Of a stretch of 12,561 nt of DNA, positions 70-12,561 are shown in pieces. Numbering within the stretch: position 1 is the first letter of the stretch; the number at the start of each line of letters is the position of its first letter. The DNA is taken from positions 1 to 12,561 of the forward strand of contig JAAYZL010000542.1 of NCBI GenBank assembly GCA_012514855.1, written 5' to 3'. Source of the DNA: Clostridiales bacterium. Lineage in GTDB: Bacteria > Bacillota_A > Clostridia > Christensenellales > Aristaeellaceae. The notes under the pieces were generated by a model. The model was not told the origin of the DNA, made no database searches, and saw nothing but the letters and a program-made list of their open reading frames with translations. The position numbers were made by a program, and so were the translations under genes.

Positions 70-87
70 TATGTGAGCGTTCACATA
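70..87. promoter_or_regulatory. LacI-family-type operator O1
   Basis: An 18-bp palindrome, TATGTGA-GCGT-TCACATA, with perfect 7-bp arms and a central CG. This is the architecture of LacI/GalR-family operators and also resembles catabolite (cre) sites. It lies immediately downstream of P1. An identical copy lies at 148-165, with centres 78 bp apart. The cognate regulator is not encoded in this window. Confidence 0.8.
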
Positions 88-5271: not shown

Positions 5272-6075
5272 GTGGGGCTGCAAAAGAAGGGCTCCCGTCG
5301 CGAGGAATCGCTGCTGCAATCCTTGCGGCTGTATAAGGAGATGTCCGTCGAGGTCGTCGCGGAGACGCTGGGCGTCTCCGTGCCGACCGCGCGCAGGCTC
5401 TGCACGAAGATGGCGAACGACAACCTCGTAATCCGCACCCACGGCGGCATCCGCGTCATGCCGGCGATCCAGATGGCCTATTCCTTTGAAGAGGTGCAGA
5501 ACGAGGAGGCGCTCGAAAAGGTCCGCATCGGCGAATACGCGTGCCAGCTGATCCGGGACGGGCAGACCGTGTTTCTCGAGGCCGGCACGACGATACTGCA
5601 GCTCGCGATCGCGCTCGCGAGGCGGATCGAGCGGAACGAGCTGCCGAATCTGATCGTCTACACGAACTCGATGAGCAATCTGGAGATACTGGGATCGGTG
5701 AAGCCCGTCAACCTGATCGGCGGGGAGTACCGCCCCGCGCGCCGCGATTTCACCGGCTACATCAGCGAGCGCATCGTCCGCAGCCTCCGGTTCGACCTGT
5801 GCTTCGTCGGCTGCGACGCGCTCAACCACGAGGACGGCATCATGGCGCAGGACGTCAACACCGCGAAGTTCGACGAACTGCTGACGGGCCGTGCGGCGCA
5901 GAGCATCGTGCTCGCGCAGTCCGCGAAATTCAACCGGCATTCGCTGATCTCCTACGCCGGCTTTTCCGACGTCTCGATGATCGTCACCGACGACAACCTG
6001 CCCGCCGAGCTGCTGGAATCCTGCCGCGCCGCGAAGGGCAATATCGCGCTGGTTCCGCTGAACGGAACGCTCTAA
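5272..6075 (+). CDS. DeoR/GlpR-family transcriptional regulator
   Basis: This 267-residue regulator has an N-terminal winged helix (about 9-60: 'RREESLLQSLRLYKEMSVEVVAETLGVS' region, 'TARRLC', then the 'RTHGGIRV' wing typical of DeoR 'HGG'). A DeoR C-terminal sensor domain (about 75-255) has 'FLEAGTT' (101-107), 'YTNS' (to S133), 'GGEYR' (150-154) and 'FVGCDAL'. These sensor motifs form the phosphosugar-binding pocket in the family, so the effector is expected to be a phosphorylated sugar. The start is GTG 5272, with GAGGTGA about 7 nt upstream; no ATG fits the ribosome site. Its stop overlaps the end of the last transporter gene by 4 bp on the opposite strand. The shared motif at 5158 and 10733 suggests it controls itself and the importer. 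The family is certain; target and ligand are inferred. Confidence 0.93.
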   Translation: MGLQKKGSRREESLLQSLRLYKEMSVEVVAETLGVSVPTARRLCTKMANDNLVIRTHGGIRVMPAIQMAYSFEEVQNEEALEKVRIGEYACQLIRDGQTVFLEAGTTILQLAIALARRIERNELPNLIVYTNSMSNLEILGSVKPVNLIGGEYRPARRDFTGYISERIVRSLRFDLCFVGCDALNHEDGIMAQDVNTAKFDELLTGRAAQSIVLAQSAKFNRHSLISYAGFSDVSMIVTDDNLPAELLESCRAAKGNIALVPLNGTL

Positions 6076-7049
6076 ATCTTTCCCAGCGCGCGCATCTTCT
6101 TCATGTGCACATATCCGTCGAACAGCACCACCAGCACGAGCGCCGCGCCGACGACGACGCTCTTGAACAGCGAGTTGATCTCGAACAGGTTGAACGCGTT
6201 TTCCAGGAGCGCTACGAACACCGTACCGAACAGCGCGCCCTTCATGTCGCCCTTTCCGCCCATCAGCGACCCGCCGCCGATGATGCAGGCGATCAAAATG
6301 TCCATGTGCAGCCCCTGCCCGAGATAGCGGCTCGCCGACTGGAAGCGGGCGATCGAGACGACGCCGGCCAGCGCGGCCAGCATGCCGCTGATCGCGTAGC
6401 ACATGATCGTCACTTTGCGCACGCCGAAGCCCAGCGACTGCGCGCTCGCCCTGTTGCCGCCGATGAAGTAGAGCTGCCGCCCGAGATACGTCTTCTTCAG
6501 CACAAACTCGAACGCGGCGAGCAGTACCAGCATGATCCACAGCATCGGGTACATGCCCAAAAACGTCCTGCCGCCGAAGTTGAGGAAGCTCTGCGGGAAG
6601 CCGGTCAGCGACATCGCGAGGTTGCTCGTCATGATCATCTCGCAGAAGCCGCGGAAGATGTACATCGTGCCGATCGTCGAAATCAGCGGCAGTATCCTGC
6701 ACACCGCGATCAGGAAGCCGTTCACGAGCCCGACCGCGAGCCCCACGGCGAGCCCGGACAGCATCGCGACGGGAACCGGCATGCCCCGGCTCAGGATGTA
6801 CCCGCACACGATGCCCGCGAGCCCCATGACCGAGCCGACCGAGAGGTCGAACATGCCGAGGATGATCACGAGCATCATGCCGATCGCCATGATGACGCGC
6901 GGCGCGATCAGCGCCTGCAGCGAGAGCAGGTTGTTCTGCATGAAGAAGTATGGGCTGAAGATCGCCAGCACGAGGAAGAACAGCAGCGAGGTCAGCGCGC
7001 CGAAGAAGCTGTCCTGCTGCCTGAATCTCTGATACGCGCGTTTCAACAT
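6072..7049 (-). CDS. Sugar ABC transporter permease (RbsC-like), second of two
   Basis: This 325-residue, highly hydrophobic inner-membrane protein belongs to BPD_transp_2 (PF02653), the ribose/xylose/galactose permease family. It has the diagnostic 'GMFDLSVGSVMGLAGI' segment near one third of its length and 'GGGSLMGGKGDMKGALFGTVFVALLENAFNLF' near the end. Around eight to ten membrane segments are expected. I choose ATG 7049, which has AGGTGGGG a few bases upstream, over GTG 7058, which lacks one. It is the last gene of the importer operon and starts 9 nt after the stop of the other permease. The two permeases differ in sequence, so the channel is probably a heterodimer. Its stop codon overlaps that of the convergent deoR-like gene, leaving no room for a terminator between them. 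Confidence 0.93.
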   Translation of the reverse strand: MLKRAYQRFRQQDSFFGALTSLLFFLVLAIFSPYFFMQNNLLSLQALIAPRVIMAIGMMLVIILGMFDLSVGSVMGLAGIVCGYILSRGMPVPVAMLSGLAVGLAVGLVNGFLIAVCRILPLISTIGTMYIFRGFCEMIMTSNLAMSLTGFPQSFLNFGGRTFLGMYPMLWIMLVLLAAFEFVLKKTYLGRQLYFIGGNRASAQSLGFGVRKVTIMCYAISGMLAALAGVVSIARFQSASRYLGQGLHMDILIACIIGGGSLMGGKGDMKGALFGTVFVALLENAFNLFEINSLFKSVVVGAALVLVVLFDGYVHMKKMRALGKI

Positions 7050-7058
7050 GTTCCCCAC

Positions 7059-8015
7059 CTACACTTTCGCGCTGTTCATGCGCACGTCGAGGAAGACGGC
7101 GACGATCAGCACCAGCCCCTGCGCGACCTGCTGGATGAACGGGTCGATCCGGTAGATCGTCATGCCGTTGGCGAGCATCGCGATGAAGATCATGCCGAGC
7201 GCGGCCTTCAGGATGCCGCCCTTGCCGCCGGCCAGCGACGCGCCGGCGACGACCAGACCGGTGATCAGCGTGAACTCGAGCCCGCTGCCGGTCAAGATGT
7301 CGGAGTGCGTGATGCGCGAGGTCGCGATGATGCCGGCGAACGCCGAGGCCAGCGCGCTGATCATGAACGCGACGCGCTTGATCCGGTCGGAGTTGATGCC
7401 GTACAGCCGGGCGGTCTCCTGCCCGTTGCCGATGTAGTAGAGCTTGCGCATCCGCGCGATCTTCTTGAGGCACAGCTCCAGCACGATGGTCAGCACCACC
7501 ATCGCGAGGATCGTCCAGTGGATGCCGCCGATCTTGAACTTCGCGAGCGCGCGGTACTCGGAGTTGTAGGTCATCGCGGGGAAGCTGTTGAACACGACGG
7601 CGTTCACGCCCGAGACGAACGACAGCGTGCCCAGCGTCACCATCATCGAGTTCAGCCGGAACCGCGTGACCAGAAAGCCCACGAAGAAGCCGAAGAGCGC
7701 GCACACGGCCAGCACCGCGAGGGACGACGGGAGCAGCCGCCACTTCCACACCGTCATGCAGAAGCCGACGAGCGTGCCCGACAGCCCGTACATCGAGCCG
7801 ACCGCGAGGTCGATCTCGCCCATGATGACGAGCAGCGTGAAGCCGATCACCGCGAAAAACTGTATCGAGACGCCGTAGAACATCGAGTAGAGGTTGCTGT
7901 ACGTGCAGAACGTGCTCGACGTGAGCGTCAGCAGCAGGAACAGCCCCGCCAGCAACAGCAAAATCGTGTAGCTGCCGAGATGGAATTTTCTCCGGGTGTA
8001 TTTCGCGTCGCTCAT
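7059..8015 (-). CDS. Sugar ABC transporter permease (RbsC-like), first of two
   Basis: This 318-residue membrane protein is of the same BPD_transp_2 family as its neighbour. It starts with a short basic segment (MSDAKYTRRKF), then a strongly hydrophobic first helix (about residues 15-33). The family motif is 'GEIDLAVGSMYGLSGTLVGF', and the C-terminal part has 'AGASLAGGKGGILKAALGMIFIAMLANGM' followed by 'LVLIVAVFLD'. I prefer ATG 8015, 5 nt after the ATPase stop and with AAAAGGGG about 10 nt upstream. A GTG at 8024 overlaps the ATPase stop as GTGA and is too close to that ribosome site. It sits between the ATPase and the second permease, as expected for a one-operon importer. Confidence 0.93.
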   Translation of the reverse strand: MSDAKYTRRKFHLGSYTILLLLAGLFLLLTLTSSTFCTYSNLYSMFYGVSIQFFAVIGFTLLVIMGEIDLAVGSMYGLSGTLVGFCMTVWKWRLLPSSLAVLAVCALFGFFVGFLVTRFRLNSMMVTLGTLSFVSGVNAVVFNSFPAMTYNSEYRALAKFKIGGIHWTILAMVVLTIVLELCLKKIARMRKLYYIGNGQETARLYGINSDRIKRVAFMISALASAFAGIIATSRITHSDILTGSGLEFTLITGLVVAGASLAGGKGGILKAALGMIFIAMLANGMTIYRIDPFIQQVAQGLVLIVAVFLDVRMNSAKV

Positions 8016-8020
8016 CTTTG

Positions 8021-9541
8021 TCACGCCCCTTTTCCCGCCGCGCCGATCGCCGCCAGGCGCATCACGCTGTTTTCGCTGATGTCGTCGCACTCGATGACGC
8101 CGGCGATGCGCCCCGTGTTCATCACGGCGATCCGGTCCGACAGCGTGATCAGCTCCGGCAGGTCGGAGCTGAAGCACAGCACGGAGATGCCGCTGAGCGC
8201 GATATCGTTCAGCAGCCGGAGTATCTCCACCTTCGCGCCGACGTCGATGCCGCGGGTCGGGTCGTTGACGATCAGGATTTGCGGCTTCGTCCCGAGGCAG
8301 ATCGAGAGCATGACCTTCTGCTGGTTTCCGCCGGAGAGGCTGCTCGGCCTGTCGTAGATGGAATTCAGCGTGATCGAGAACTGCCGGACGAAGTCGAGCG
8401 TGTAGTTTTCGACCGCCTTCGTCGACATCAGGCCGTGAACGGCGAGCTTGTCCAGCGCCGGCGCGGCCATGTTCTCCGCGACCGACATGTTGAACAGCAG
8501 CCCCGCGTCCTTGCGGTTGTTGCTCAGGAACACGACGCCCTCCCGGATCAGCGCCATCGGCGTGATGCTGCGGATCTCCCTGCCGTTGACGAACAGCCTT
8601 CCCGTGTCCTTTCCGTGCAGGCCGAACAGCATGCGCGAGAACTCGTAGGTGCCGGAGCCCTCGAGCCCGAACACGCCCATGATCTCGCCGAGGCGGACGC
8701 TGAGCGAGGCGTCCAGCAGCGTCTTTCCCTTCGAGAAATTCCGCGCCTCCAGCGCGACCGGGACGCCCCCCGGCACCGCGCACTGTTTTTTCGAGTAGAC
8801 GTTCTTCTCGAAATCGCGGCCGACCATGCTGCTGATCAGCGTGTTTTCGGTCAGGTTCGCGTCGTTTTCAAAGGTGTTGACGTACATCCCGTCGCGCAGC
8901 ACCGTGATGCGGTTCGAAATTTCGAGCACCTCGGAGATCCTGTGCGAGATGTAGATGATGGAGATGCCGTCGTCCCGGAGCCGCTTCAAGATGCGCATCA
9001 GGTTCTCCGTCTCCTGCGTGTTGAGGCCGGACGTCGGCTCGTCGAGCAATATGATCTTCGCGTTCGCCGACAGCGCGCGCAGTATCTCGACCATCTGCTG
9101 CATCGAAAGCCGCAGGTCGCCCATCTTCGCGGTCGGGTCGACCTCGAAATCGAAGCGCTTCGCCGCCTGCCGGACGCGCCGGATCAGCTCTTTTTTCGGA
9201 ATGAGCCTGCGCGCGCCCTCGGGGTAGGGGAACACGTTCTCGTAGACGGCGAGGTTTTCAAAGATCGACAGTTCCTGGTGCACGATGGCGATGCCCGCCG
9301 CGCGCGAGACCATCGGGTGAAACGCCGAAAACCGCTTCCCGTCCACGGCGATCTCGCCCGAATCCGGCGCGTGCTCGCCCGAGAGCACCTTGATCAGCGT
9401 CGACTTTCCGGCGCCGTTTTCCCCGAGCAGCGTGTGAATCTCGCCCCTTTTGACGGACACGCTGACATCCCTGAGCGCCTGGACGACCCCGAAGCTCTTC
9501 GAGACCCCGCGAATCTCCAGAATATTCCCGCTTTGCTCCAT
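8021..9541 (-). CDS. Sugar ABC transporter double ATPase (RbsA/MglA-like)
   Basis: This 506-residue protein holds two fused nucleotide-binding domains, as in RbsA/MglA. Domain 1 (about 1-240) has Walker A 'GENGAGKST' (40-48), Q-loop Q89, a weakened signature 'LRLSMQQ' (143-149), and Walker B 'IILLDEP' (163-169). Domain 2 (about 255-500) has a degenerate Walker A ('GLEGSGTYE'), an intact signature 'LSGGNQQ' (402-408), and a Walker B ending N426-D427 instead of D-E. The pairing implies one competent ATP site (Walker A of domain 1 with the signature of domain 2) and one dead site. The start is ATG 9541, with GGAGGGAAGGG just upstream; a TTG at 9562 lies in front of that ribosome site and is rejected. 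It energises the two permeases encoded downstream; the substrate is probably a monosaccharide. Confidence 0.95.
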   Translation of the reverse strand: MEQSGNILEIRGVSKSFGVVQALRDVSVSVKRGEIHTLLGENGAGKSTLIKVLSGEHAPDSGEIAVDGKRFSAFHPMVSRAAGIAIVHQELSIFENLAVYENVFPYPEGARRLIPKKELIRRVRQAAKRFDFEVDPTAKMGDLRLSMQQMVEILRALSANAKIILLDEPTSGLNTQETENLMRILKRLRDDGISIIYISHRISEVLEISNRITVLRDGMYVNTFENDANLTENTLISSMVGRDFEKNVYSKKQCAVPGGVPVALEARNFSKGKTLLDASLSVRLGEIMGVFGLEGSGTYEFSRMLFGLHGKDTGRLFVNGREIRSITPMALIREGVVFLSNNRKDAGLLFNMSVAENMAAPALDKLAVHGLMSTKAVENYTLDFVRQFSITLNSIYDRPSSLSGGNQQKVMLSICLGTKPQILIVNDPTRGIDVGAKVEILRLLNDIALSGISVLCFSSDLPELITLSDRIAVMNTGRIAGVIECDDISENSVMRLAAIGAAGKGA

Positions 9542-9567
9542 ATGCCCTTCCCTCCGATACAAAACAC

Positions 9568-9597
9568 GGCTATCCGGAACCTGCGTTCCGAATAGCC
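9568..9597 (-). promoter_or_regulatory. Intercistronic stem-loop between binding protein and ATPase
   Basis: A 13-bp inverted repeat (9568-9580 with 9585-9597, a single G-U-type mismatch) encloses a 4-nt loop. On the - strand it is followed by GTGTTTTG. It lies between the binding-protein stop and the ATPase ribosome site. Such stems in binding-protein operons act as partial terminators or protect the upstream mRNA, giving more binding protein than ATPase. The structure is seen; the role is inferred. Confidence 0.65.
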
Positions 9598-9613
9598 ATG
9601 CGTCTCGGTGCGT

Positions 9614-10624
9614 TTAGCCGTAGAAGCTGGAGTCCAGCATCGGCATGTTCTCGATCATGAAGTTGTCGACGTTGTCCTGCGTGATGAACACGGTGCCGTT
9701 GTAGCAGACCTCGGGGACGGCGTTGATCCCGGCCGCGGCGTTGTCGCCGGAGAGCGGCAGGCCCTGCATGCCGTTCTGCACGATGCCGTTGAGGATCAGA
9801 AGCGCCAGGAACGGCATCGAGGCGGTCTTGTTGACCAAGGTGCAGTTCAGGTAGCCGTTCTTGATGTACTCGAGCGTCAGCACCTCGCGGTCGTGCACGA
9901 TCGCGGTGATCGAGCCGGGCGCCTTGCCGAGCTCCTCCATCGCGGCGCCGATGCCCGCGCCGGAGCTCGAGTCGAGGCCGACGATCGCGGTCATCTCGGT
10001 GTAGTTGTTGAAGGCGGTCTTGGCCTGCTCGATGGCGGTCTCGGTCACGGCCTTGTCGTCGAGCTTCGCGATGACCTCCCAGGTGGAGTTCTCCGCGAGA
10101 TAGTCCTCGAATCCGGCCAGCTTCTGGTCGGTGTTCGCGGCGCCCCAGTTGCCCATCACGACGACCTTTCCGCCCGCGCCGCCGTACTCGATCAGCTTCA
10201 TCGCGGTCTTCTTGCCGGAGTCGTAGTTGTCCAGGCCGATGTAGGAGACCACATTGGCGCCCGCCATCGTGGACTCGATCGCCACGACCGGGATGCCCGC
10301 CTCGGCGGCGGCCTGAATGCCGGGCAAAATGGAGGCGTCGAAGATCGGCACGATGATCCCGTCCGGGCCCTTCGTGATGGTCTGCTCCATCGCGGCGGCC
10401 TGCCCCTGCGGGTCCCAGTCGTCGACGCCGGCCTTGACGACCTTTACGCCGAGCTTTTCGGCAGCATACTCAAAGCCCTGATGCACGTCGTACCAGTAGG
10501 GATGGTTGTTGTTGACGCCGACGTAGTAGTACGTGACCTCCTTTTCCTCGGCCAGCGCGGCGGATGCGGCCGAGAGCAGCAGAACAAGCGCGGTCAATAG
10601 AGCGAGCAACTTTGTTCCTTTCAT
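9614..10624 (-). CDS. Sugar ABC transporter substrate-binding protein (RbsB-like)
   Basis: This 336-residue exported protein belongs to the periplasmic-binding-protein type-1 family (PF13407). Its signal peptide is residues 1-25 (MKGTK basic start, hydrophobic 6-20, cleavage after ALA before EEKE). The mature protein opens with 'VTYYYVGVNNNHPYWYDVHQGFEYAA', the family's first strand and ligand loop. Later come 'GIIVPIFDASILPGIQAAAEAGIPVVAIEST', 'YIGLDNYDSG', and 'AIVGLDSSSGAGIGAAMEELGK'. There is no lipobox Cys, unusual for a monoderm-type importer. AAGGAGG lies 7 nt before the ATG. It is the first gene of the importer operon, preceded by a strong promoter and a candidate DeoR site, and followed by a stem-loop. 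The family is certain; the ligand (ribose-, galactose- or other sugar-like) cannot be told from sequence alone. Confidence 0.95.
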   Translation of the reverse strand: MKGTKLLALLTALVLLLSAASAALAEEKEVTYYYVGVNNNHPYWYDVHQGFEYAAEKLGVKVVKAGVDDWDPQGQAAAMEQTITKGPDGIIVPIFDASILPGIQAAAEAGIPVVAIESTMAGANVVSYIGLDNYDSGKKTAMKLIEYGGAGGKVVVMGNWGAANTDQKLAGFEDYLAENSTWEVIAKLDDKAVTETAIEQAKTAFNNYTEMTAIVGLDSSSGAGIGAAMEELGKAPGSITAIVHDREVLTLEYIKNGYLNCTLVNKTASMPFLALLILNGIVQNGMQGLPLSGDNAAAGINAVPEVCYNGTVFITQDNVDNFMIENMPMLDSSFYG

Positions 10625-10981: not shown

Positions 10982-10995
10982 GATGTATACAATAT
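10982..10995. promoter_or_regulatory. GntR/FCD operator, copy 1
   Basis: GATGTATACAATAT contains the palindrome TGTATACA. FadR/FCD-subfamily GntR proteins commonly bind sites built on a GT-N2-AC core, which GTATAC fits. The site lies at the predicted transcription start of the GntR gene, and an exact 14-bp copy is at 11795-11808. Confidence 0.65.
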
Positions 10996-11019: not shown

Positions 11020-11718
11020 ATGCGCGACGATCTGGAAAGAGTCATAGACGTGCTGGAGCAGCCGGGGATAAAATCAAAGTATCGCTCGCTGATGGACATC
11101 GTCTATGATCAACTGCAGGACGACATACTGTCCGGAAAGCTCCCGCCCAATTCCCCGCTGAACACAAGCGAGATCGCGCTGAACATGAAGATCAGCCGCA
11201 CCCCGGTTCGGGAGGCGATCAACAAGCTGGCGTCCGTGGGGCTCGTCAACAAGACGAACCACAAGGAATCGAAGGTCTCGAGCTTCATGGGCGACGAGAT
11301 TCACGAGATCTACTACGTGCGCGCGGCCCTGGAGGGGCTGGCGGCGAGAACCGCGGCGAAGTCCATGAGCCGGGCGGACAAGGAGGCGCTTTTGCTTCTC
11401 GCGCAGCAGTCGAAGCAGCTCGCCGAGACGGGCGACCTCGAGCGGTTCATGGAGAACAACTACCGGTTCCACCACCTGATCTACAAGTACGTCACGACGC
11501 CGCTGATCCGGGCCGTGATCGAGCAGTTTTACATCATCTCCCGCCAGTACCGAAACATCGGCTACGAGCTGAAGGACCGCAACCACTCCGTCTCCGAGGA
11601 GCACGCCCTGATCGCCGAGAGCATCTGCGCCGGCAACGAGGACGACGCGGAGAAGTACGGGAGGCTGCACCACCAGCAGACGATGATGGTGATTCAGGAG
11701 CAGTTCCAGGCGAAGTAG
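11020..11718 (+). CDS. GntR-family regulator, FCD (FadR-type) subfamily
   Basis: This 232-residue regulator has a GntR winged helix at about residues 20-85 ('VYDQLQDDILSGKLPP', 'LNTSEIALNMKISRTPVREAINKLASVGLV') and an all-helical FCD ligand domain at about 90-225. The FCD metal-site histidines appear as H151 ('NYRFHH'), H195 ('EEHALI') and H217 ('RLHHQQ'), with the usual 22-residue spacing between the last two. The expected Asp four residues before the first His is N147, which may weaken metal binding. FCD regulators usually sense carboxylates or sugar acids. The start is ATG 11020 with GGAG 8 nt upstream; GTG 11011 overlaps the ribosome site. It is transcribed towards the damaged second binding-protein gene, and identical GTATAC-containing sites precede both, so it probably represses itself and that downstream gene. 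Confidence 0.93.
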   Translation: MRDDLERVIDVLEQPGIKSKYRSLMDIVYDQLQDDILSGKLPPNSPLNTSEIALNMKISRTPVREAINKLASVGLVNKTNHKESKVSSFMGDEIHEIYYVRAALEGLAARTAAKSMSRADKEALLLLAQQSKQLAETGDLERFMENNYRFHHLIYKYVTTPLIRAVIEQFYIISRQYRNIGYELKDRNHSVSEEHALIAESICAGNEDDAEKYGRLHHQQTMMVIQEQFQAK

Positions 11719-11958
11719 CCCGCTGCGGCGGCGCCCCCCTCCGCGGCGCTTCCCGCGGAAGGGTGGAAACCGGCATGGGGGCATTGCGGCCTATGATGTA
11801 TACAATATGCAAGATATGGGAAACGCGGCGCGGGGACTGCGGAGAGGGCGGGGGGTGGCGAAAGAAACCGGGCGGCTCGGGGAATCAAAAATCCCGCTTG
11901 GGCGGTTCACACTGCAAGTCGCGGCGGAAGCCGTGAAATAAAAGAGAGGGATTTGTCA
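11719..11958. other. Leader region of the second binding-protein gene
   Basis: This 240-bp GC-rich gap has a short inverted repeat CCGCGG-N6-CCGCGG (11741-11758), which has no T-tract and so is a weak terminator candidate for the GntR gene. It also holds the second GntR site at 11795-11808. I find no convincing -35/-10 pair; TACAAT at 11801-11806, inside the GntR site, is the best -10 candidate. No gene is seen. Confidence 0.5.
11795..11808. promoter_or_regulatory. GntR/FCD operator, copy 2
   Basis: An exact 14-bp copy (GATGTATACAATAT) of the site at 10982-10995, located 150 bp before the second binding-protein gene. It overlaps the best -10 candidate (TACAAT) there, consistent with repression by the adjacent GntR protein. 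Confidence 0.65.
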
Positions 11959-12351
11959 ATGAAGAACCTGGTTTCCCTGTTCCTGGCACTGGCGATGATG
12001 CTGGCCCTCGTCCCCGCGGCGATGGCAGACGATCCCATTGAAATCGGCGTCATCAGCTACAACTGGGCCAACACCTTTCAGAGCTACCTGAACGCGGGCT
12101 TCAGGTACTGGAACGAGCGGTACGACAGCGTGAACATCACACTCTATGACGGCGAGAACGACCAGGCCATCGAGAACGACAAGATCGACACCGCCGCCGC
12201 GCAGACGGTCATCGAAAAGGCGCGCGCGGCCGGCGTGCCGGTCGTCTTCTACAACAGGATGCCCGCCCCGGAGGCGCTCGCCTCCTATGACTATTGCCTG
12301 TGCGTCGGCGTCACGACGCGCAACCAGGGCAAGCTGCAGGGCGAGTTCTAG
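11959..12351 (+). pseudogene. Truncated MglB-like sugar-binding protein gene
   Basis: The readable part encodes 130 residues of an exported galactose/glucose-type binding protein (MglB-like, PF13407), where about 310-340 are expected. The signal peptide is residues 1-23 (cleavage after AMA). 'IEIGVISYNWANTFQ' is the first strand and ligand loop; 'LYDGENDQAIENDKID', 'AAAQTVIEKARAAGVPVVFYNRMP', 'ALASYDY' and 'LQGE' align with E. coli MglB. Two lesions are visible. Between 'NDKID' and 'AAAQTVIEK' about 16 residues found in MglB (the strand ending near 'INLVDP') are absent, with frame kept. Then the reading stops at TAG 12349 right after 'QGEF', where homologues continue. The following DNA is a hairpin-rich repeat, so insertion is likely. 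GAGAGGG lies 8 nt before ATG 11959. It was probably the first gene of another importer operon continuing beyond the window. Any product would lack the second lobe and be non-functional. Confidence 0.8.
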
Positions 12352-12561
12352 GCAACCGCTGATTTATTCGGCGGCGGGCCTGCCGGCCGCTTTTCCGCCC
12401 CCACAAGGTTGGTTTCCCTTTGGGAAACCAAGTCGCTACGCGACCGTGCGATTCAAATGAATTTGAATCGCACGCCGTTGTCGCTCATCCGGTCGCCGTA
12501 GCGCTGCTACGGCTCCCTTCTGGCTCCGTGTGGGGACGAAAAATCGCCTCGGCAATCCACC
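12346..12561. repeat. Nested-hairpin palindromic element, MITE/REP-like, runs off the window
   Basis: After the point where binding-protein similarity ends, the DNA is non-coding and packed with inverted repeats. There is a 10-bp stem (12409-12431, loop TTT), a 5-bp stem (12432-12444), a perfect 14-bp stem with 2-nt gap (12445-12474) and an 8-bp stem (12495-12513). All are enclosed by an outer arm pair 12391-12405/12529-12543 matching at 13 of 15 positions. The element would fold as a multi-branched cloverleaf. It encodes no transposase. The left boundary is approximate and the right boundary lies outside. A non-autonomous transposable repeat is most likely; a structured RNA or a dimer-resolution/attachment-type site are alternatives. 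Confidence 0.7.

What the first reader, a model, noticed from the sequence alone, without database searches (positions are those of the whole stretch)
12346..12561. Cloverleaf-like multi-hairpin element interrupting a binding-protein gene
Four consecutive perfect stems (10, 5, 14 and 8 bp) are nested inside a 13/15 outer inverted repeat, in DNA starting exactly where similarity of the binding protein to MglB stops. The first three stems abut without spacing. Such order is far beyond chance and fits no standard feature (CRISPR, tRNA, classic terminator). It could be an undescribed non-autonomous mobile repeat or a structured RNA family of this lineage.
Basis: partly seen in the sequence, partly recalled or inferred. 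Interest (0 to 1): 0.7.

Follow-up and report, generated by a model that had tools for sequence, protein, structure and literature searches.

The report
Multi-hairpin repeat ending a transporter gene
A 216-base stretch of DNA packed with perfect hairpins sits exactly where a sugar-binding-protein gene of a gut-type bacterium breaks off; it looks like a copy of a non-coding mobile repeat, but no second copy could be found in the data at hand.

Summary
Observation confirmed. Four perfect stems (10, 5, 14, 8 bp; three abutting) lie inside a 13/15 outer inverted repeat, and binding-protein similarity stops one residue before the TAG at 12349. None of 5000 dinucleotide shuffles had three stems of 8 bp or more; 6 of 15,619 tiles of other loci did. 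Rfam, tRNA and terminator scans found nothing in the element. A second protein, 96% identical, ends at the same residue.

By one gene the lineage is Christensenellales-like; no genome of it could be reached, so copy number in the host is unknown. No convincing homologue turned up in phages, plasmids, viral contigs or 291 Clostridia genomes.

A pattern from the window's CTCATCCG plus a recalled motif uncovered dispersed multi-hairpin units in other Clostridia: many copies, compensating stems, core absent at 8 of 8 comparable sites of a close relative. They share the window's layout (cap hairpin abutting a GTC...GAC hairpin), but their covariance model does not recognise the window (best 3.9 bits, E 2.9). 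Same kind by layout, not a member by sequence. Best reading: one copy of a lineage-specific non-autonomous hairpin repeat at the end of a decayed mglB-like gene; confidence 0.6.

The parts
11953..12351 (+). Truncated mglB-like periplasmic sugar-binding protein gene (start codon at 11953 or 11959); lacks about 16 internal residues and about the C-terminal half; its TAG (12349-12351) lies at the junction
   Evidence: ORF; Peripla_BP_4 to profile position 112/258; PDB alignments; P0021, 96% identical, ends at the same residue
12349..12561 (.). Multi-hairpin element; left end inferred as the point where binding-protein similarity stops; right end not in the window
12391..12405 (.). Left arm of the outer inverted repeat (13/15; extends to 12388-12408)
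12529..12543 (.). Right arm of the outer inverted repeat (extends to 12526-12546)
12409..12431 (.). Hairpin 1 (cap type), 10 bp perfect, loop TTT
12432..12444 (.). Hairpin 2, GTCGC-TAC-GCGAC, abuts hairpins 1 and 3; GTC...GAC closing as in the Clostridia repeat units
   Evidence: fold; layout scan
12445..12474 (.). Hairpin 3, 14 bp perfect, loop 2 (near-palindrome of 30 nt)
12485..12492 (+). CTCATCCG octamer just 5' of hairpin 4, identical to the tag of the Clostridia repeat units; suggestive only
   Evidence: sequence; tag in the repeats; model match not significant
12495..12513 (.). Hairpin 4, 8 bp perfect, loop 3

Best explanation
The segment is (most of) one copy of a non-coding, non-autonomous interspersed repeat built of consecutive hairpins inside an outer inverted repeat, a MITE/BIME-like element of a Christensenellales-like bacterium. 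Shown: the hairpins, their improbability, the gene break at the left edge, and that units of the same layout are multi-copy and polymorphic in other Clostridia. Inferred: that it arrived by transposition in trans (a resident transposase recognising the hairpins and outer arms), that the insertion finished off an already decaying binding-protein gene, and that the contig stops here because the repeat recurs and breaks the assembly.
For: Non-chance stems; all 37 bp of the four stems are Watson-Crick, none G-U, as expected of symmetry kept at DNA level. No Rfam match at gathering score and only one weak match, outside the element, at E <= 1; no tRNA or tmRNA; no promoter-like or terminator-like site in 11700-12561. 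Similarity to the binding protein stops at the edge, and P0021, 96% identical from another contig, ends at the same residue, so the junction is unlikely to be an assembly error, although the DNA behind P0021 was not seen. The layout 'hairpin of 8 bp or more, 0-2 nt, GTC...GAC hairpin' occurs at one place in the window (hairpin 2, with hairpin 1 on one strand and hairpin 3 on the other), 17 times in 1.96 Mb of G075 and 0 times in 1.71 Mb of other loci. Units of that layout are dispersed, show compensating changes, and their core is absent at 8 of 8 comparable sites in a relative. Two such units end 19 and 71 bases before contig ends in G077.
Against: No other copy was found. The covariance model of the Clostridia units gives at most 3.9 bits, E 2.9, over the element, below six other places in the same window. 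The tag-cap relation seen in those units was not found here. The right end, any target duplication and the copy number are unseen. The layout criterion was chosen after seeing the window.
Confidence: 0.6

Rival explanations
1. Deletion or rearrangement junction: the binding-protein gene was cut short by a deletion that brought up an intergenic region that already carried a hairpin cluster; the element did not insert here.
For: The gene shows another in-frame loss of about 16 residues, so it was decaying anyway; in G040 and G075 the hairpin units sit in mosaic intergenic regions where both genomes carry different sequence, and of the five sites looked at closely only one looks like a simple presence/absence block.
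Against: Does not explain the hairpins themselves, only how they came next to the gene; the outer inverted repeat starts within about 40 bp of the break.
Confidence: 0.22
2. Structured RNA, such as a cis-regulatory leader or a small RNA of this lineage, lying between the binding-protein remnant and the next gene beyond the contig end.
For: Very stable fold on both strands, z -7.1 and -8.6.
Against: No Rfam match at gathering score and none in the element at E <= 1; no promoter-like or terminator-like site; no relatives on which to test covariation; all stem pairs Watson-Crick, so both strands fold alike.
Confidence: 0.1
3. A degenerate or lineage-specific member of the CTCATCCG cap-hairpin-tag units found here in other Clostridia: left half = cap plus GTC hairpin, right half = tag plus hairpin plus a decayed cap.
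For: CTCATCCG at 12485 directly before hairpin 4, then CCCTTC after it; cap plus GTC...GAC on the left; by eye, extra hairpins interrupt at least one unit in G040.
Against: Covariance model match not significant; no clean cap on the right; no tag after hairpin 2; tag-cap relation not found.
Confidence: 0.08

Closest known systems
Cap-hairpin-tag repeat units of Clostridia genomes G040, G075, G076, G077, G067, G085, G033
   Same: Consecutive perfect hairpins, cap abutting a GTC...GAC hairpin, CTCATCCG octamer before a hairpin, inverted pairing of half-units, some copies near contig ends
   Different: Cap sequence, no second clean cap, a 14-bp hairpin in the place of the tag, tag-cap relation not found, covariance model does not match
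MITEs (RUP, NEMIS, ERIC, Nezha and others, as listed in PMC3733652; passages seen)
   Same: Size in the 70-300 bp range given there, inverted outer arms of about 15-21 bp, no gene seen, strong secondary structure
   Different: Copy number, true termini and target duplication not shown for the window element
REP/BIME elements with GTAG or CGTC tags (PMC3733652; abstract and passages seen)
   Same: Palindromic units, sometimes paired in opposite orientation
   Different: Larger, several different hairpins in a row; no unpaired GTAG/CGTC tag recognised by eye; that paper's main text has no word beginning with 'Firmicutes' or 'Clostridi'

Membership tests
Clostridia CTCATCCG cap-hairpin-tag units (model R1) | Significant match to a covariance model trained without the window | tested here: not met
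   Best over the element 3.9 bits, E 2.9; the same model gives 76 rows at E <= 0.1 in 1.94 Mb of G075 (7 of them cap-only, most of these the reverse of another row; one G075 site was in the training set) and 0 at E <= 0.1 in 1.36 Mb of other loci, best 0.14
Clostridia CTCATCCG cap-hairpin-tag units (model R1) | Cap hairpin of 8 bp or more abutting a GTC...GAC hairpin | tested here: met
   criterion chosen after seeing the window
Clostridia CTCATCCG cap-hairpin-tag units (model R1) | Purine tag after the second hairpin that mirrors the cap arm | tested here: not met
   best 6 of 8 over up to 80 offsets on either strand; none of the four best offsets printed for each is right after hairpin 2
MITE | 70-300 bp, no coding capacity, outer inverted repeats | tested here: inconclusive
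   213+ bp; one of six frames was scanned against Pfam without a match; outer arms 13/15 to 17/21, but whether they are terminal is unknown
MITE | Many dispersed copies in the genome | not testable with these tools
   No whole genome held for the window
MITE | Target-site duplication at an empty orthologous site | not testable with these tools
   Right end outside the window; no close relative reached
REP/BIME | 20-40 bp palindromes with unpaired GTAG or CGTC tag, high copy | tested here: inconclusive
   No such tag recognised by eye; copy number untestable
Known structured RNA (Rfam 15) | Match at gathering score | tested here: not met
   0 matches in the window; one match at E <= 1 in 11700-12561, 17.8 bits against a gathering score of 40, at 11955-12019, outside the element
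tRNA/tmRNA | ARAGORN detection | tested here: not met
   0 genes
Intrinsic terminator | G+C-rich stem followed by a T run | tested here: not met
   0 found in 11700-12561

The most novel reading that the evidence does not exclude
The window element and the Clostridia units belong to one broad, undescribed superfamily of mobile multi-hairpin repeats that are moved as folded single strands and whose recognition code includes a third strand lying on the cap hairpin (in the Clostridia units the tag reads the cap as in a purine-motif triple helix), the window copy being a divergent form that replaced the tag by an extra hairpin.
Probability: 0.1. Interest if true: 0.75.

Novelty: new member of a known kind. 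Interest (0 to 1): 0.42.

Why it matters
If it is a repeat, it adds a lineage to the bacteria known to carry hairpin repeats that end genes and fragment assemblies. The wider result met on the way, a multi-subfamily set of hairpin units in Clostridia with compensating stems, presence/absence polymorphism between close relatives and a tag that covaries with the cap as a mirror, can be tested directly: it asks which transposase moves them and whether a triple helix is part of the recognition.

Tried and rejected
Yet 70-90% relatives exist among public proteins, one (76%) named Christensenellales bacterium (quick tree, in which at least three of my own rows were mis-picked frames on very long branches). 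The ABC protein search had a threshold that was too strict and scored 3 candidates per genome (0 of 396); the intact binding protein gave at most 32% (9 of 128 genomes, 8 of 169). I read N-terminal signal sequences as a hint of lineage; it led nowhere.

Judged chance, by eye: L101 (1 of 11 genomes at E <= 0.1; coding-like); the viral stretches (coding-like or without the neighbouring hairpins); and the 24 short matches (18-33 nt) in 23 of 291 genomes at E <= 0.05. About 15 matches would be expected there, so there is an excess, and more so at the strong end (7 at E <= 0.006, about 2 expected); they fall on many different parts of the element, most of them 10 to 60 nt from its left end or on the stems. 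One search scored only 2 first-look candidates per genome. I printed the surroundings of 6 of the 24: coding-like, and one terminator-like. Phage matches at E 2-8 I take as chance.

Rejected ideas: read-through of the element in the extra ends of G6PDH proteins (none convincing); one frame of the element, translated, in plasmids and phages (none); the window as a plain member of the CTCATCCG units. Clean insertion points in G040/G075 were sought at four sites and one more. Most are mosaics; one 778-base block in G040 is absent in G075, where the two flanking matches overlap by 6 bases. I did not establish a duplication.

Full report
WHAT IS THERE. The last 216 bases of the window hold four perfect stems of 10, 5, 14 and 8 bp at the stated places, the first three without a single base between them, inside an inverted repeat that matches 13 of 15 (12391-12405/12529-12543) and 17 of 21 when extended. 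Both strands fold far better than shuffled sequence (z -7.1 and -8.6, 0 of 200 shuffles as good). Counting only perfect stems of at least 8 bp, three are seen, and none of 5000 dinucleotide shuffles reaches three. Among 15,619 half-overlapping 216-nt tiles of the loci held then, 6 reach three. So the order is real and rare, not unique.

THE GENE. The reading frame from 11953 is a sugar-binding protein of the Peripla_BP_4 family with a signal-like N-terminus (by eye), closest in the PDB to galactose-binding proteins. Similarity runs to residue 128 of the 129 read from 11962, and the frame ends at TAG 12349-12351. Relative to MglB the remnant also lacks about 16 residues in the middle (shift between the two aligned parts), so it was probably no longer functional. 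In the protein database one relative turned up among 89 candidates, P0021, 96% identical and ending at the same residue, on a separate 627-base contig. Full-length relatives could not appear in that search because of its length limits, and the DNA behind P0021 was not seen. The shared end argues against an assembly artefact. One reading frame of the element was scanned against Pfam without a match; the other five were not.

NOT A KNOWN FEATURE. Rfam has no match at gathering score anywhere in the window. In the permissive scan of 11700-12561 there is one match, 17.8 bits against a gathering score of 40, at 11955-12019, upstream of the element. There is no tRNA or tmRNA and no promoter-like or terminator-like site in the region.

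SEARCH FOR COPIES. The window's genome is not held. Its glucose-6-phosphate dehydrogenase is 90% identical to a public metagenome protein and 76% to one named Christensenellales bacterium, and in a quick tree it sits in a well-supported clade of 73 rows; the lineage rests on this one gene. I could not reach a genome of that clade: overlapping samples of 391, 398, 51 and 60 genomes gave nothing above 54%. The element has no match in phages or plasmids by blastn at E 1e-5; of eight exact patterns run on the viral contigs, four found nothing and four found 8 stretches in all that look like chance. There is no match in 24 and 11 genomes at E 0.001. In 291 genomes of the class of G001 (an uncultured Clostridiales bacterium), 24 short matches in 23 genomes reach E 0.05 where about 15 are expected, best 6.8e-4; two candidates per genome were scored, and none of the six inspected has the neighbouring hairpins. 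These absences say little about the host lineage itself.

A RELATED KIND IN OTHER CLOSTRIDIA. The octamer CTCATCCG just before hairpin 4 reminded me of repeats in gut Clostridia. A pattern made of it and CCTTCCCC was found 47 times in 9 of 69 genomes, with 0 matches for the reversed control. In 44 of the 47, by eye, the bases between form a hairpin (two with a bulge) whose sequence varies in a compensating way; the other three (two in G066, one in G001) look like chance. Extracting copies shows a half-unit: tag CTCATCC or CTCATCA, variable hairpin, short linker, cap hairpin CCTTCCCC-loop-GGGGAAGG or a variant, often with a second half-unit inverted nearby. On 23 aligned half-units (chosen from 35 different ones), 93.7% of cells pair against 74.8% when shuffled, 51 cells change on both sides against 16.8, and the covariation score is 0.407 against 0.096, each reached by 0 of 500 shuffles; no slid control exceeds 0.067. 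The two other measures do not exceed the shuffles: pairs with a change on both sides, 6 against 5.7 (358 of 500 as high), and further pair types, 14 against 13.3 (235 of 500). These rows had been chosen for perfect hairpins, which inflates the result; the choice had not. A covariance model of them gives 76 rows at E <= 0.1 in 1.94 Mb of G075 (7 cap-only; one G075 site was in the training set) and none at that level in 1.36 Mb of other loci. G040 and G075 are close relatives. Of the 18 G040 copies, 17 were examined; 8 of the 17 have both flanks (85-97% identical) in the G075 sequence held, and the exact core is absent from all 8, although some of these G075 intervals carry other unit types and one interval spans over 2 kb in both genomes. 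Of five sites looked at closely, four are mosaics of several repeats and one is a 778-base block missing from G075. Such units also end 19 bases before the end of a 154,320-base contig and 71 bases before the end of a 66,414-base contig in G077; the window's element likewise stands at the end of the window.

IS THE WINDOW ELEMENT ONE OF THEM? By layout, yes: a cap hairpin of 8 bp or more followed within 2 nt by a GTC...GAC hairpin is found at one place in the window, 17 times in 1.96 Mb of G075 (15 of them clear units by eye), 19 times in 308 kb chosen around known units, and 0 times in 1.71 Mb of other loci. The criterion was set after seeing the window. By sequence and structure together, no: the model's best score over the element is 3.9 bits, E 2.9, lower than six other places of the window. 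The right half has the tag and a hairpin but no clean cap, and the left half has a 14-bp hairpin where the tag should be. I therefore do not file it as a member.

A SIDE RESULT. In the GTC-type units of those Clostridia the purine tag after the second hairpin follows the cap: position by position it is the complement of the cap's pyrimidine arm read in the same direction, a mirror relation. The 34 units give 15 distinct cap/tag pairs; 91 of 105 positions agree against 78.3 when tags are permuted, 0 of 20,000 permutations as good; with one tag per cap type, 68 of 77 against 56.4, 2 of 20,000 as good. If the triads of a purine-motif triple helix are allowed (G on G-C, A or T on A-T, T on C-G; recalled chemistry, chosen after seeing the data), 110 of 120 agree against 87.3, and with one tag per cap type 84 of 88 against 63.0, 0 of 20,000 in both. 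Watson-Crick pairing between tag and cap would not make such a relation (inference). The units are related by descent, so the numbers are not clean probabilities. I did not find the relation in the window element.

LITERATURE. The only paper opened is PMC3733652 (abstract and passages), used for the definitions of REP, BIME and MITE; the other hits were seen as search listings only. Searches by topic and by literal sequence found no description of this element or of the Clostridia units; the library holds only open-licence papers.

VERDICT. The most likely reading is one copy of a lineage-specific non-autonomous hairpin repeat at the end of a decayed binding-protein gene (0.6). Next come a rearrangement junction bringing up a hairpin-rich intergenic region (0.22), a structured RNA (0.1) and a degenerate member of the Clostridia units (0.08). 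The decisive test, copies in a complete genome of this species, could not be run.

Noticed in passing
L169-L318 (G040, G067, G075, G076, G077, G085, G033): Large, multi-subfamily set of dispersed cap-hairpin-tag units with compensating stems in Clostridia; at 8 of 8 comparable sites the G040 core is absent in the close relative G075.
   Followed up: partly
G040/G075/G076/G077 units, e.g. L239:17836-17883, L199:9447-9493, L308:8176-8223: The tag covaries with the cap arm as a mirror (parallel complement), 0 of 20,000 permutations as good over 15 pairs and 2 of 20,000 with one tag per cap type; the pattern fits a purine-motif triple helix on the cap.
   Followed up: partly
G040 and G075 intergenic regions, e.g. 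L204, L205, L232: Several further repeat families are intermixed, such as GGGCGGATATTATCCGCCC, GGCCGGATGCCCACATCCGGCC and tracts of CTAATCACTACGTT.
   Followed up: no
window 10983-10995 and 11796-11808: ATGTATACAATAT occurs before the GntR/FCD regulator gene and again before the truncated binding-protein gene; possible operators of that regulator (read by eye).
   Followed up: no
window 70-87 and 147-166: Two copies of the palindrome TATGTGAGCGTTCACATA near the window start, an operator-like pair.
   Followed up: no
window 11962-12348: Besides being truncated, the binding-protein remnant lacks about 16 residues relative to MglB.
   Followed up: partly
window 6072-10624, minus strand: Sugar ABC transporter set: a second, full-length binding protein (9614-10624), ATPase (8021-9562), a permease (6072-7058) and a further permease-like frame, next to a DeoR-type regulator (5272-6075, +).
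   Followed up: no
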